NCBI RefSeq assembly: GCF_014204795.1
Contig: NZ_JACHMB010000001.1
Span: forward strand, 992,001 to 1,056,000
DNA: 64,000 bases
Source of the DNA: Nonomuraea jabiensis
GTDB lineage: Bacteria; Actinomycetota; Actinomycetes; Streptosporangiales; Streptosporangiaceae
Reading direction: 5' to 3'
Both the position numbers and the translations under genes were made by a program. The notes beneath the pieces were generated by a model that was not told where the DNA came from, ran no database searches, and saw only the letters and a program-made list of their open reading frames with translations. Below, in pieces: positions 1-64,000 of this stretch. Position 1 is the stretch's first letter. Every line of letters begins with the position of its first letter.

Positions 1-3000
1 CCCCTGCTCGCGGTCGTCGCGGGCCTGGCGGAGGTGGGCGGCCAGCGCGGCGACGGTCGGCTGGTTGACGAGCTGGCGTACCAGGCTGTCCCAGTAGAAG
101 CCGCTCGCCTCCGCCAGCTCCTCGCGCACCCGCCCGGCCAGGCGGGTGACCAGCAGGGAGTCGCCGCCCAGGGCGAAGAAGTCCTGGTCCCGGTAGACGC
201 GCGGGAGCCCGAGCAGCTCGGCCCAGAGGGCGGCCAGCCGCCGTTCGAGGTCGTCGCGCGGCTCCTCGCCGCCGGTCGCGCTCTCTCCGGCCGTGCTCGG
301 CAGGAGGGCACGCAGCCGCGCCCGGTCGATCTTGCCGTTGTCCGTCAGCGGCAGCTCGTCGACCACCTGGACGTGGGCCGGGAGCATGTAGTCGGGCAGC
401 CGCTCGGCGAGGAACGCCCGCAGCTCCGCCAGGTCGATCCGCTCCCGGTCGTCGGGGAAGCGGGCCGCGAACACGCACTGCCCGAGGGACGCCAGCGGGT
501 CGCCCGGCCCGGGCAGGCAGGCGAGCGTACGGGCGCCTGCCCCGCGCAGCAGGTCGAGCCACTCGTCGCGGGTGACGAACGTCCGGTCGCGGCCCTGCCG
601 CACGTCGGCGTAGTCGTGCGGGTTCATCAGGAACTCCATCGAACTCATGATCTGGACGTGCTCGCGGGTGGTCTCGATGAACACCAGCCACCCGCCGGGC
701 ACCAGCAGCTCGCGGAACCTGGCCAGCACGGCGGCGGCGTCGTGGGAGTTGTGCAGGACGTTGGCGCAGAGGATGACCTCGAAGGAGTTCGGCTCGTAGC
801 CCTGGGCGCGGTAGTCGGCGTTGATGTCGAACAGGCCGTAGCGCACCCACGGGTGGTCGGCGAACCGTTCGGCGGCCTGGGTGAGGAAGAACCGCGACAG
901 GTCGGTGAAGACGTACTCGACCTGGTGTCCGGCCAGCTCCGGGATCAGCTCGGCGCTGGTGCCGCCCACGCCCGCGCCCGCTTCCAGGACGCGCAGCGGC
1001 CCGCCGGTGTGGTGCTCGGCCACGCGGCCGACCACCGCGCGCACGATGCGGTTGACGTACCTGCTGAGCACGTTGTCCTTGTACGCGCCCTCGGCCGTCC
1101 CCATGTCGCCCTCGGGGAACAGCAGCTCGCGGGCGTCGAGCTCGCCGCGCATCAGCTCGGGCAGGTGCGTGGTGCTGACCCGCAGGAACCCGATCAGCTC
1201 GGCCCCGTAGTCGAGCCCCTCGGTCAGGCTTTCGACCTGGCGCCACAGCGGCTCCACGCCGGTGTCGCCGCGCAGGTTCCGGTACCGCCCGTCGGGGTCG
1301 CGGTCGAGCCGTCCGCGCTCGTGCAGCGCGGCGAGCCAGCGGCGGACGAGCCGGTGGTGGTCCGGCGCGACCCGCGCGGCGGTCAGGATCTCCTCGAGGC
1401 CGTGGCCGTCCTCGGTGGTGAACAGGCCGCCCGTACGGAGCGCCGCCGCCATGGAAGCGAGCGCGATCTCGTCGAGCGTCTCGGCCACCGCCACGACGCG
1501 CGCCAGATCGACACCCTCCAGCGCCGCGCCCGCCGCCATTTCGGCCGCACCCGCGACATCCGGCGTGTCGCCTGCTCCGGTCTGCTCGGCCGGCGCGCCG
1601 TCGTCCTCGCGTGCGGCGGGCTGGGCGAAGGCGATGTCGTCCTCGCGTGCGGCGGGCTGGGCGAAGGCGATCAGGCGGCGTTCCAGCGCGCGGTCGCCGT
1701 CCACGATCACGGTCCCGGCCGCGACCGCGGGGTGTGCCTGCAGCGCGGTCTCCACCTCGGCCAGCTCGATCCGATGGCCACGGATCTTGACCTGGGAGTC
1801 CTCCCTGCCGAGGAACTCGATGTTGCCGTCGGGCCGGTAGCGGCCGAGGTCGCCGGTCCGGTAGAGGCGCTCGCCGCCGTGCCGTACGAAGCGCTCGGCG
1901 GTCCTGCCCTCATCGCCGAGGTAGCCGATCGCCACGCCGGCGCCGCCGATGTACAGCTCACCCGGCACCCAGTCGGGGCAGGGTCGCATGGCGGCGTCGA
2001 GCACGTGGAAGGTCTGGTTGGCCAGCGGCTTGCCGTACGGGACGCTCGCCCAGCCGGGCAGCGGGTCACCGACGGAGTGGTAGATGGACCAGATCGCGGC
2101 CTCCGTGGCCCCGCCCAGGCTGATCACGTCCAGTCCCGGCACGCGGCGGCGGATCTGGCCGGGCAGTGCCACCGGGATCCAGTCGCCCGACAGCATCGCC
2201 AGCCTCAGCGTGGGCAGCTCCGCCGCGGGCTCCGCGTCCAGGTAGTGCTGGAGCATCTGGAGCTGCGCGGGCACCGAGTTCCACACGGTGACCCGGTGCC
2301 CGGCGACGAGCTCCGCCCAGTGGGCCGGGTCGCCCCGGCGGGACGGGTCCGGCAGCACGAGGGCCGCTCCGACGGCGAGCGGCCCGAAGATGTCGTAAAC
2401 CGACAGGTCGAACCCCAGGTTGGCCAGCCCGAGCACCCGGTCGTCCGGGCCGACGCCGAAGCGGGCGCTGATGTCGTCGATGGTGTTGCGGGCGGCCCGA
2501 TGGCTGATCATCACGCCCTTGGGCACGCCGGTCGAGCCCGAGGTGTAGATGACGTAGGCCAGGTCGTCAGGACGCCGCCGGCCACCACCGTCCTCGACGC
2601 GGGTTGGCGGGAGGGCGTCCTCGGCGTGGGCCGGTGGGAGGGTGTCGACGGGGATCCAGTCGTGCTCGGCGTGCCAGGACTGCGTGAGCACCAGCCGGGC
2701 CGAGCCGTCGGCGAGGATGCGGTCGCGCCGCGCCGGCGGCTGCCCCGTGTCGACCGGCAGGTACGCGCCGCCGGCCAGCAGCGTGCCGAGCACCGCCACG
2801 ACCTGCTCGACCCCCTTGTCCATGACCACGGCGACGATCTCGCCGGGCTGGTGCCCCGCCTCGCGCAGCGCCCGCGCCACCCCGGCGGCCCGGTCCAGCA
2901 GCTCGCCGTACGTGATCGAGCCGGCGCCCGTGACGACGGCGGTTCGTTCCGGCGTGCGGCGTGCCTGGGCCACGACCTCCTCGTGCAGCAGCCCGTCCGG

Positions 3001-63800: not shown

Positions 63801-64000
63801 TCGATCCGCCCGTGCTCGATCGCCTCCCACGAGGCTTCCAGCAGGACCCGCTGCTGCGGGTCCATGGCCAGGGCCTCGCGCGGGCTGATGCCGAAGAACT
63901 CCGGGTCGAACTCGGCCGCGTCGCGCAGGAAACCGCCGTCCCGTACGTACGAGGCGAGCTGGGCCTCGGGGTCCGGGTCGTAGATCCCTTCGACGTCCCA
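57839..64000 (-). CDS. Type I PKS, module KS-AT(methylmalonyl)-DH-ER-KR-ACP plus C-dock (5' end outside window)
   Basis: The reading frame is open at base 64000; 2053 residues are visible. The KS has TACSSS about 130 residues in. AT has GHSQGE and YASHS (methylmalonyl). DH has HQVNGQVLLPG and HPALLDAALH. ER (bases about 59205-60120) has LNFRDVLIALDMYPG and the NADPH motif HAAAGGVGMAAVQ. KR has TGGTGALG and GVLDDG. The ACP and a C-terminal docking helix with a terminal ISFIDSEFG end the protein. A full reduction loop predicts -CH2-CH(CH3)-. The Tyr in the ER MYPG motif is the residue associated with a 2S methyl. One oddity is that the KR catalytic Ser position is Gly (codon 58760-58762). It should dock to the PKS 34 bases downstream. 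Further modules may lie upstream outside the window. Confidence 0.95.
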   Translation of the reverse strand, partial: WDVEGIYDPDPEAQLASYVRDGGFLRDAAEFDPEFFGISPREALAMDPQQRVLLEASWEAIEHGRIDPGSLRGTRTGVFVGAAYEEYGRHSDQVPLESVGHLVTGTLSSIASGRVAYALGLEGPAVTVDTACSSSLVALHLAAQALRNGDCDLALAGGVTVMCTPLGFIGFSLQGALARDGRCKPFAGAADGFALSEGVGMLLVERLSDARRNGHPVLAVVKGSAINQDGASNGLTAPNGPSQQRVIRQALATAGLSGAEVDVVEAHGTGTTLGDPIEAQALIATYGQDRERPLWLGSVKSNIGHTQAAAGVAGVIKMVMAMRHGVLPRTLHVDEPSPHVDWSAGAVELLTEARPWDVQDHPRRAAVSSFGISGTNAHVIIEQVPGTDEEPEPVDEPPVVPWVLSARSAEALRAQAGRLADAVAGARPVDVAHSLVASRSAFDHRAVVIGGDREELLAGLDEGAVRGVAEPCGKTVFVFPGQGSQWLGMGVELLDESPVFAARMAECEAALSEFVDWSLTGVLRDQAGLDRVDVVQPVLWAVMVSLAEVWRSLGVVPAAVVGHSQGEIAAAVVAGALSLRDGARVVALRSQAIVALAGQGGMASIPLPASEVAVDDRISIAAVNGPSSTVVSGDADAIEEFLARYERARRIEVDYASHSAHVEAIEEELARLLAPVTPQAGEVPWYSTVRQCWLSGAEVDAAYWYENLRHTVWLEPSVRALAEQGHGVFVEVSAHPVLTMAVQETVEDVVACGTLRRDDGGLRRLWTSAAELWVRGVNVDWAQALEPAAPRMVDLPTYAFQHQHFWLEERTTGAGDVGAAGLGAAGHPLLAASVSLADADGVLLTGRLSLKTHPWLADHQVNGQVLLPGTAFVELAVRAGDEVGCDLLEELTLQAPLIVPERGAVQLQLAVGAPYEDGRRQLTVHTRPDGGAAGDPWTCHAIGVLAPEAAAPPAQEAATWPPEGAQPLPTAGLYDWLGAVGLGYGPTFQGLKAAWRRDEELFAEVALPEGTETGGFGLHPALLDAALHSVALNAATAEDGPRMPFAWTGVRLHATGATSIRVRLTPRGTDDVTLAVTDTTGVPVAHVDSLILRPLPADLGAEQRAPGEDSLYTLEWAPVPAGEPAGEQRWAVIGDPSELAAAGIDAAGHAGLAELVATGSVPEWVVVPLDGEPGPELAVAVADRTCQVLELLQTWLAEEGFPASRLVLLTRGAVATTAEEEVPDLANAGVWGLVRSAQSESPERIVVLDLDRDADSCRALPAALATGEAQLAIRKGTAYAPRLARPGAGGALTPPAGAANWRLDVTTRGTLDDLALLPTPSAALAPGQVRIGTKAMGLNFRDVLIALDMYPGDAPMGGEGAGVVIEVADDVTTLAPGDRVMGIVDGFAREAVTDHRLLARIPDGWTFAQAASVPIAFVTAYHALVDLAGLQAGERLLVHAAAGGVGMAAVQLAHHLGAEVYGTASESKWDAVRELGVPAERIASSRTLEFAQTFAPGVDVVLNSLAGEFVDASLGLLRPGGRFIEMGKTDVRDPAELPSVRYQNFDLTLLGPARTGEILAEIAALFARGALRLPPISTWDVRRAPDAFRYVAQARHIGKVVLTAPPALDPEGTVLVTGGTGALGALAARRLVTEHGVRHLVLAGRRGPAADGAAALEAELTGLGASVTVAACDAADRDALAALLASIPAEHPLTGIVSTAGVLDDGMISSLTPERVEAVMRPKVTAAANLHELTADLDLAQFILYSGAAGILGSPGQGNYAAANTFLDALAQHRRARGLAATSLAWGLWSPQSGSGMTGHLDEADLSRLSRSGMGALGLDEGLDLFDRALSVDEAALVPIHLDLATLRAGAAKGFGHPLFRGLVRISTRRVLAAETPLGESLTDRLAALPEAERAPMLLDLVRGHVAAVLGFAGPESVEPGRAFKDLGFDSLTAVELRNRLKAVSGLRLPVSLIFDYPNAAALAAHLLEELAPPAHSAEQQVLAELDRIEARLAVMAAECATAGDITARLEQLVFAWKERHQASATVDDVAGQLSSATADEIISFIDSEFGLS

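What the first reader, a model, noticed from the sequence alone, without database searches (positions are those of the whole stretch)
1..64000. Tetramate polyketide line and aryl-poly(thiazoline) line interleaved in one co-directional locus
Seen: genes for a keto-terminated PKS, Gly module and Cys cyclase are interrupted by an aryl-AMP ligase and isochorismate synthase, and are followed directly by ArCP-Cy-A-PCP-Cy-A-PCP and Cy-A(MT)-PCP NRPSs. Known: the first set fits TrdC/NcmC-type tetramates, the second coelibactin/pyochelin/yersiniabactin-type metallophores. Inference: either one hybrid (for example the aryl-thiazoline acid acylating the polyketide hydroxyl set by module 1) or two co-regulated metal-binding products. 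I know of no described compound with both.
Basis: partly seen in the sequence, partly recalled or inferred. Interest (0 to 1): 0.88.

Follow-up and report, generated by a model that had tools for sequence, protein, structure and literature searches.

The report
Interleaved tetramate and metallophore gene supercluster
In some soil actinomycetes the genes for two chemical assembly lines, one predicted to build a polyene tetramic acid and one predicted to build a metal-binding aryl-thiazoline, are interlaced in one conserved block although relatives carry each set alone, so the two products would likely be made together.

Summary
The locus extends beyond the window to about 101 kb (18 co-directional genes) and is syntenic in the three further Nonomuraea genomes read in full. 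It holds two complete assembly lines. One is a KSQ-loaded, 14-module, keto-ending PKS with Gly module and NcmC-type Cys cyclase (tetramate). The other has a DhbC-type isochorismate synthase, aryl-AMP ligase, two Cys-NRPSs ending in a Cys-TE, and a thiazolinyl imine reductase (coelibactin/yersiniabactin type). Each has its own loader and release enzyme.

Both halves exist alone: the tetramate half in Streptomyces AcH 505 and Embleya, the aryl half as a compact cluster in three other Nonomuraea. In 341 genomes of the family, all 7 with the cyclase ortholog have the ligase ortholog; 4 have the ligase only. The aryl-only cluster's ABC/ABC/TetR cassette persists intact at another site in five merged genomes, while the 44 ligase-less Nonomuraea show no ortholog of its first ABC. 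A promoter-region 12-mer found twice in the genome, also present in tetramate-only clusters, precedes the genes that lead into the aryl NRPSs.

Best reading: a merged supercluster making two co-regulated products. A covalent hybrid is possible but not supported.

The parts
57839..64000 (-). PKS_B, C-terminal part (whole gene 57839-68719, 3626 aa): modules 11 and 12; the part in the window is module 12, KS-AT-DH-ER-KR-ACP
   Evidence: Pfam (module 12; module 11, in L011); gene joined with L011
48283..57804 (-). PKS_C, 3173 aa: module 13 KS-AT-DH-KR-ACP and module 14 KS-AT-ACP (no KR hit, keto end)
   Evidence: Pfam; motifs
46645..48234 (-). Aryl-AMP ligase, 529 aa, pocket NWTGTGACGK (most relatives: NFSAQGVVNK)
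   Evidence: TIGR02275 657.6 bits, below its 723.55 cut-off; pocket; PDB relatives
45198..46619 (-). Isochorismate synthase, 473 aa, DhbC/EntC type and not the salicylate synthase type
   Evidence: TIGR00543 319 bits over cut-off, TIGR03494 97.6 under cut-off; PDB
44259..45158 (-). ABC exporter-like ATPase; a 65% homologue lies near the tetramate-only cluster of AcH 505
43474..44262 (-). ABC permease (no NCBIfam hit; overlaps the ATPase by 4 nt; 42% homologue beside the ATPase in AcH 505)
43362..43373 (-). TAGGGGTTACCC promoter-region element; the only other exact copy in the genome lies before the MupA-type monooxygenase at C1:1087247
42390..43292 (-). FG-GAP beta-propeller protein, 300 aa; belongs to the tetramate half (74 and 79% in AcH 505 and Embleya)
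   Evidence: Pfam; model pLDDT 92.8
14907..42332 (-). PKS_D, 9141 aa: KSQ-AT-ACP loader, module 1 (KR only), modules 2-5 (DH-KR)
   Evidence: Pfam; KSQ motif
14062..14886 (-). TrdC/NcmC-type Dieckmann cyclase, 274 aa, Cys-Asp-His
10979..14065 (-). Gly NRPS module C-A-PCP, 1028 aa
   Evidence: Pfam; code
4545..10907 (-). NRPS ArCP-Cy-A(Cys)-PCP-Cy-A(Cys)-PCP, 2120 aa
   Evidence: Pfam; codes; motifs
1..4548 (-). NRPS TubC_N-Cy-A(Cys)-MT-PCP, continuing past the window edge to a terminal TE with a Cys nucleophile (gene end at window position -929); start chosen just before the TubC_N domain, the mechanical ORF begins at 4770
   Evidence: Pfam

Best explanation
This locus is a merged gene cluster that holds two complete assembly lines, one predicted to make a polyene tetramic acid and one predicted to make an aryl-tris(thiazoline) metallophore, and the two lines likely release two separate products that are switched on together. 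Predicted tetramate line: KSQ loader on PKS_D, then 14 extension modules in the order D, A, B, C, a terminal beta-keto, Gly addition, and release by Dieckmann closure on the NcmC-type cyclase. Predicted metallophore line: an isochorismate-derived aryl acid is activated by the ligase and loaded on the ArCP. Three Cys are then added and cyclised, one ring is methylated and one probably reduced, and the Cys-nucleophile TE releases the chain. The aryl genes lie directly behind both tetramate gene runs: ligase-ICS behind TEII-PKS_A-B-C, and the NRPS block behind FG-GAP-PKS_D-cyclase-Gly. If each run is one transcription unit (inferred from mostly short gaps, untested), neither product can be made without both units. 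A conserved element that also precedes the tetramate-only operons stands before the second unit, so the metallophore genes appear to have been captured by the tetramate promoter (inferred). The two chelators would then act together, for instance metal deprivation plus a membrane- or metal-active tetramate (speculative).
For: Shown: each line has its own loader and release enzyme. The 18-gene order is the same in G000, G002, G040 and G046, and the fragments of Sphaerisporangium melleum agree. The tetramate half is alone in Streptomyces AcH 505 and Embleya hyalina. The aryl half is alone in G015 and G051, and as a variant in G050, with the same ligase pocket and the same Cys-TE. Census of 341 family genomes: cyclase orthologs in 7, ligase orthologs in those 7 plus 4. 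The aryl-only cluster G015 carries an ABC/ABC/TetR cassette; G051 has the same at 88-89%. Its first ABC has a match at E<=1e-190 (75% or more) in 7 of 54 Nonomuraea: the 2 aryl-only genomes just named and 5 of the 6 merged ones, and 0 of the 44 without a ligase ortholog (Fisher 6.8e-7, orphans alone 2.2e-5). The whole cassette is intact at all five orphan sites (66-80% identity), with no aryl gene in the stretches read: about 5 Mb away in the two one-contig genomes, on other contigs in the three drafts. A transporter kept for the aryl product speaks for a free metallophore. Trees of ligase and cyclase show the same main groups of merged taxa (pairwise identities Spearman 0.83 over 7 genomes). 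TAGGGGTTACCC occurs exactly twice in 13.17 Mb, both times in promoter regions of this cluster; it also precedes FG-GAP in both tetramate-only loci, and no close form is in the 4 aryl-only loci read.
Against: No product, transcript or mutant is known. The orphan transporter count is phylogenetically non-independent (four of the five genomes are close relatives) and fails in G046 (best 53%) and in S. melleum (best 36%). The Gly-to-NRPS gap holds a strong GC hairpin in G000 and G002 (-34.8 and -32.5 kcal/mol) and widens to 161 nt in S. melleum, so read-through is uncertain. The element is missing before the monooxygenase of G046, and G040 has a one-base variant; chance alone could give about one exact copy per genome (the reversed control pattern occurs once). 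The aryl acid is unknown: the genome shows one CM_2 domain only, in a 358-aa frame; a DHB dehydrogenase over cut-off is found in 0 of 7 genomes; and the ligase pocket is unusual. The merged-clade support of the cyclase tree is modest (84/90).
Confidence: 0.7

Rival explanations
1. One covalent hybrid: the aryl-tris(thiazoline) acid is transferred by the Cys-TE or another enzyme onto a hydroxyl of the tetramate, giving a single conjugate of the sideromycin kind.
For: Order conserved in the merged loci read. The Cys-TE type is proposed to make an unusual release in sorangibactin (PMC10127202, passages). The four merged loci read in full carry a luciferase-like (MupA-family in G000) monooxygenase pair not found in the stretches read of the tetramate-only or aryl-only loci.
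Against: The TE, the ligase pocket and the modules are the same in the aryl-only clusters, apart from one duplicated A domain. The loader KSQ is ancestral. No new acyltransferase or condensation gene is among the 18. An aryl-cluster transporter cassette is kept whole in 5 merged genomes.
Confidence: 0.13
2. Chance neighbours: two unrelated clusters fused once and stay together only because they share operons; there is no joint function.
For: The merged ligases form one clade (95/94, with four listed proteins of unseen context inside) and the merged cyclases one weaker clade (84/90), so one merger explains the data.
Against: The arrangement persists at about 65-86% protein identity and in a second genus. 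G040 groups with Thermoactinospora proteins in both trees, which suggests that the block moved as a whole (their gene context was not seen). 7 of 7 cyclase genomes kept the ligase.
Confidence: 0.12
3. The aryl line supplies a precursor to the tetramate line, for example an aryl starter for the PKS.
For: Aryl activation genes sit between PKS genes.
Against: PKS_D begins with a KSQ-AT-ACP decarboxylating loader, and KSQ is present in merged and tetramate-only clusters alike; the ArCP is part of the Cys NRPS.
Confidence: 0.03

Closest known systems
TrdC/NcmC-type tetramates (tirandamycin, nocamycin, alchivemycin; PMC9349299 and PMC10956176, passages)
   Same: Modular PKS-NRPS ending in an amino-acid module, released by a stand-alone Cys-Asp-His Dieckmann cyclase; NcmC is the only strong PDB match.
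   Different: This PKS has a KSQ loader, 14 modules with nine DH-KR modules in the run 2-10, and an FG-GAP protein beside it (not compared gene by gene with those clusters); it shares its gene runs with a second assembly line.
Coelibactin/sorangibactin-type clusters (PMC10127202, passages)
   Same: Aryl-loaded Cy-A-PCP NRPS, MT domain, TE with a Cys nucleophile, saccharopine-dehydrogenase-like protein; thiazolinyl imine reductase of the Irp3 kind.
   Different: All three A domains read as Cys; DhbC-type isochorismate synthase rather than salicylate synthase; ligase pocket NWTGTGACGK; no P450 among the 18 genes; split around a PKS.
Yersiniabactin HMWP2 (domain order recalled)
   Same: Aryl-only relatives G015 and G051 have ArCP-Cy-A-PCP-Cy-PCP with one A domain.
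   Different: The merged loci carry a second A domain, 94-96% identical to the first.
Superclusters (cephamycin C/clavulanate, recalled; mfq meroterpenoid/phenazine cluster, PMC12814520, listing and start of abstract only)
   Same: Two pathways side by side that can be co-regulated.
   Different: Here each pathway is split over both gene runs, and both unmerged forms and a left-behind transporter cassette can be seen.

Membership tests
TrdC/NcmC Dieckmann cyclase | Cys-Asp-His triad at the alpha/beta-hydrolase elbow | tested here: met
   C90, D117, H255 invariant in 20 of 20
TrdC/NcmC Dieckmann cyclase | Full-length homology to NcmC | tested here: met
   1.6e-73 over 273 profile positions
TrdC/NcmC Dieckmann cyclase | Tetramate-forming activity | not testable with these tools
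   no assay
Coelibactin/yersiniabactin-type aryl-thiazoline metallophore | ArCP plus Cy-A(Cys)-PCP modules | tested here: met
   Pfam shows the Cy domains as Condensation, and that they are Cy rests on motifs and the Cys codes
Coelibactin/yersiniabactin-type aryl-thiazoline metallophore | Thiazolinyl imine reductase | tested here: met
   TIGR01761 344.3 bits, cut-off 188.8; PF21390
Coelibactin/sorangibactin type | TE with a Cys nucleophile and a saccharopine-dehydrogenase-like partner | tested here: met
   GYCMGG in 7 of 7 aligned loci; PF03435
Coelibactin/yersiniabactin-type aryl-thiazoline metallophore | Salicylate supply (salicylate synthase, or isochorismate synthase plus lyase) | tested here: not met
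   ICS is DhbC/EntC type; one CM_2 only in the genome. So filed as works-like, aryl acid open
Aryl-AMP ligases for DHB or salicylate | Pocket code of the DHB or salicylate type (codes recalled) | tested here: not met
   NWTGTGACGK in the query and in 14 of the 120 listed relatives; NFSAQGVVNK in 83 of the other 106 (only the best 120 of 7480 hits were listed)
Metallophore | Binds metal and is taken up | not testable with these tools
   only an orphan ABC cassette seen; direction of transport unknown
Supercluster of two pathways | Each half found alone elsewhere | tested here: met
Supercluster of two pathways | Shared regulation | tested here: inconclusive
   shared element and mostly short gaps, but a hairpin lies at one junction; no RNA data
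Supercluster of two pathways | Two separate products | not testable with these tools
   needs metabolomics of mutants

The most novel reading that the evidence does not exclude
The two lines make one molecule: a polyene tetramate carrying an aryl-tris(thiazoline) chelator, attached by the Cys-nucleophile TE, that is, a natural metallophore-antibiotic conjugate that would be taken up through the orphaned metallophore ABC cassette kept elsewhere in the genome.
Probability: 0.13. Interest if true: 0.9.

Novelty: new variant of a known kind. Interest (0 to 1): 0.62.

Why it matters
Interleaved clusters are usually met as a finished fact. Here the tetramate cluster alone, the metallophore cluster alone, the merged block, and a transporter/regulator cassette left behind in merged genomes can all be seen in living relatives. 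That makes the birth of a supercluster traceable, and it makes the question of one product or two testable with two gene deletions. It also flags an aryl-acid ligase clade with a pocket that matches neither the DHB nor the salicylate code that I recall, and a coelibactin-like line whose product is unknown.

Tried and rejected
Aryl starter for the PKS: rejected, because the KSQ loader is there in merged and tetramate-only loci. Salicylate synthase: rejected on family scores. DHB by in-genome enzymes: no DHB dehydrogenase over cut-off in 7 genomes, although G040 has a partial 275.7-bit match (cut-off 300) about 1 kb from a paralogous ligase. I guessed that the FG-GAP protein might resemble the tetronasin cyclase Tsn11, but PMC7489565 (passages) says Tsn11 is PyrE3-like, so I dropped that; the fold search gave lectin-like and other propellers. 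Among the papers listed by the supercluster search, the tetramate-thiazoline-siderophore search, the species search and the searches, no title or abstract start describes this locus; some searches listed fewer papers than they found (20 of 34, 20 of 196, 12 of 13, 6 of 8, 12 of 20). That is a statement about those searches of the held library only. First-round code reading by eye for Gly was replaced by the aligned DILQLGVIW. For 'merged' or 'aryl-only' I counted ligases of 70% or more; G185 (63%) was dropped, and the ten cyclase hits of 31-39% in the 341 genomes were dropped as other TrdC-like enzymes. G042's contig begins just before the ligase, so its cluster was not seen whole.
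Full report
What is in the window. The window lies in a single 13.17 Mb contig, most likely of the genus Nonomuraea: the closest cyclase is 98% identical and from N. angiospora. All real genes of the locus run on the minus strand. The long plus-strand frames are high-GC shadows: 23 of 23 that I scanned had no Pfam match. In order of transcription, with window coordinates: a type II TE (94243-95055, in L012), PKS_A (8492 aa, 68751-94229), PKS_B (3626 aa), PKS_C (3173 aa), aryl-AMP ligase, isochorismate synthase, ABC ATPase, ABC permease, FG-GAP protein, PKS_D (9141 aa), Dieckmann cyclase, Gly NRPS, NRPS_2120, NRPS_1899, a saccharopine-dehydrogenase-like protein, thiazolinyl imine reductase, a type II TE and an O-methyltransferase, 18 genes. 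The block is about 101 kb if the divergent monooxygenase and flavin reductase at its upstream end are included.

The tetramate line. PKS_D starts with a KSQ-AT-ACP loader (DSAQSAS) and has five extension modules. PKS_A has five, PKS_B two and PKS_C two, 14 in all. Module 1 has a KR only. Modules 2-10 have DH and KR; module 7 has an odd DH motif, read by eye. Module 11 has a KR only, module 12 has DH-ER-KR, module 13 has DH-KR, and module 14 has neither KR nor DH hits, so the chain should end as a beta-keto. The order D-A-B-C is inferred from the loader and is supported by G046. There one module is missing from the start of PKS_A and one extra sits at the end of PKS_D, with the total unchanged (the motif misses the first KS of PKS_B in G000 and gives one KS for PKS_B in the other genomes too). 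The Gly module reads DILQLGVIW (that this is a Gly code is recalled). The cyclase has the Cys-Asp-His set in 20 of 20 aligned sequences, and NcmC is its only strong match among solved structures.

The aryl line. The three A domains read DLYNLSLIW, DLFNLSLIW and DLYNMSLIW (Cys codes recalled). The second NRPS carries an MT domain and ends in a TE with a Cys nucleophile (GYCMGG), conserved in 7 of 7 aligned loci, merged and aryl-only. The reductase is over the cut-off of TIGR01761 (344.3 bits against 188.8). A Cys-TE and a saccharopine-dehydrogenase-like protein also mark the coelibactin/sorangibactin clusters (PMC10127202, passages read). Two features do not fit a plain salicylate line. The isochorismate synthase is DhbC/EntC-like (TIGR00543 over cut-off, salicylate synthase model far under), and among the 18 genes there is no lyase. 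One CM_2 domain in a 358-aa frame is all the genome shows. No DHB dehydrogenase reached the cut-off in 7 genomes. The ligase pocket is NWTGTGACGK in the query, in 14 of the 120 listed relatives, and in the eight merged and aryl-only loci that I aligned. 83 of the other 106 listed rows have NFSAQGVVNK. So the aryl acid is open.

Both halves exist alone. Around cyclase relatives in named genomes (7 loci), four have the cyclase-Gly-ArCP/Cy order (N. deserti, N. longispora, N. soli, Sphaerisporangium melleum). Streptomyces sp. AcH 505 and Embleya hyalina have PKS_D-cyclase-Gly with no aryl genes, and Crossiella has only a distant cyclase and Gly module. In wider regions of AcH 505 and Embleya the tetramate half is there as a whole, TEII-A-B-C facing FG-GAP-D-cyclase-Gly, with the FG-GAP protein at 74 and 79%. 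Conversely G015 and G051, and in another order G050, have a compact aryl cluster: ICS and ligase, the two NRPSs, dehydrogenase, reductase, TEII and OMT, without the tetramate half (none of these genomes has a cyclase match). In G015 and G051 the first NRPS has a single A domain, ArCP-Cy-A-PCP-Cy-PCP. The merged loci have two that are 94-96% identical within a genome but only 79-82% between G000 and G040 or G046.

Together they are conserved. G002, G040 and G046 have the full block in the same order and strands, at 92-99.7% (G002) and 65-86% (G040, G046) identity, with the same neighbours, PPDK and the monooxygenase pair. In 341 genomes of the window's family (Streptosporangiaceae, inferred) the cyclase ortholog (66% or more) is in 7 genomes (17 pass E 1e-30; ten at 31-39% were left out). 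The ligase ortholog (70% or more) is in the same 7 and in G015, G042, G050 and G051 (12 pass E 1e-210; G185 at 63% left out). Trees of both proteins agree on the main groups, among them G040 with Thermoactinospora sequences, which points to movement of the block as a unit. Merged ligases form a clade at 95/94; merged cyclases one at only 84/90, and several forks inside are unresolved.

What merging changed. The aryl-only cluster of G015 has two fused ABC transporters and a TetR gene behind the isochorismate synthase and an MFS gene beyond the OMT. G051 has the same cassette at 88-89% and an MFS gene; G050 has a more distant ABC pair, about 50%. The merged block lacks them. Yet the first ABC has a match at E<=1e-190 (75% or more) in 7 of 54 Nonomuraea: the two aryl-only genomes and five of the six merged ones. 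None of the 44 genomes without a ligase ortholog has one (Fisher 6.8e-7, orphans alone 2.2e-5). I read all five orphan sites (G000, G002, G014, G024, G040): at each one ABC, ABC and TetR stand together, at 66-80%, and no aryl gene is in the 20-36 kb read. In the two one-contig genomes the cassette is about 5 Mb from the block; in the three drafts it is on another contig. Against this: G046 and S. melleum have no such ortholog (53 and 36%), and four of the five holders are close relatives. I read the kept cassette as a sign that the aryl product is still a free compound with its own transporter. The direction of transport is unknown.

Regulation. Gaps at the aryl/tetramate joints are short: PKS_C to ligase 33-66 nt in five loci; Gly to NRPS_2120 about 36-77 nt to a start candidate in six of seven loci and 161 nt in S. 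melleum. A strong hairpin sits in the latter gap in G000 and G002, so read-through is not certain. A larger gap, 168-261 nt in five of five loci, precedes the FG-GAP gene. It holds a strongly folding stretch and, in each, the element CTAGGGGTTAC. The exact 12-mer TAGGGGTTACCC occurs twice in the genome (reversed control once), both times here: before FG-GAP/PKS_D and before the MupA-type monooxygenase. The same 12-mer stands before FG-GAP in AcH 505 and Embleya; no close form occurs in the four aryl-only loci or at the two orphan cassettes scanned. G040 has a one-base variant and G046 lacks the copy before the monooxygenase. Hence the inference that the NRPS block came under the tetramate promoter.

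Verdict. The likeliest account is one merger of two stand-alone clusters into an interleaved supercluster with two co-made products (0.70). A covalent hybrid (0.13) and functionless neighbourhood (0.12) remain. The listings of the literature searches showed no description of the locus. Papers were seen as search listings, except PMC9349299, PMC10127202, PMC11626248, PMC10956176 and PMC7489565, of which I read passages.

Noticed in passing
window 42390-43292: FG-GAP protein beside PKS_D in all 7 loci with PKS_D where I looked (G000, G002, G040, G046, S. melleum, AcH 505, Embleya), absent in Crossiella; confident propeller model (pLDDT 92.8), best PDB match the S. griseus UmbA4 complex 9oee_A (TM 0.56 by query length), then fungal lectins. 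A 65% relative is in Streptomyces reniochalinae, the species in which the tetramate bripiodionen was found (PMC10956176). Possible cyclase, chaperone or self-protection factor.
   Followed up: partly
window 46645-48234: Aryl-AMP ligase clade with the invariant pocket NWTGTGACGK; a sister form NWTGAGM[IV]GK occurs in four of the 120 listed relatives, among them Nocardiopsis composta. Substrate unknown.
   Followed up: partly
L012 11239-12881 (upstream of the window): MupA/Atu3671-family luciferase-like monooxygenase (TIGR04020, 478.6 bits) followed by a flavin reductase, divergent from the TEII gene, with the second copy of TAGGGGTTACCC; homologues present in the four merged loci read in full, not in the tetramate-only or aryl-only stretches read.
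   Followed up: partly
window 4545-10907: The two A domains of NRPS_2120 are 94-96% identical within each of four genomes but 79-82% between G000 and G040 or G046, while two aryl-only relatives have one A domain: a duplication kept alike, perhaps by gene conversion.
   Followed up: yes
G046 L028-L033: One PKS module has moved from the start of PKS_A to the end of PKS_D, with the module total unchanged.
   Followed up: partly
G040 L039 and G046 L033, upstream of the TEII gene: Between TEII and the monooxygenase lie an acyl-CoA carboxylase carboxyl transferase and a TetR gene (Pfam in G046; similar-sized frames in G040 not scanned); absent in G000.
   Followed up: partly
window plus strand, e.g. 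28230-35030: Very long plus-strand open frames opposite the PKS genes are high-GC shadow frames with no family match.
   Followed up: yes
G050 L076-L079: Aryl-only variant with a 3490-aa NRPS frame holding three A domains, another gene order and a more distant ICS (40% over the matched part).
   Followed up: no
L092 (AcH 505), Gly NRPS: The Gly NRPS of Streptomyces AcH 505 matches in three pieces with a gap of about 1 kb inside: an insertion or a broken gene, not examined.
   Followed up: no
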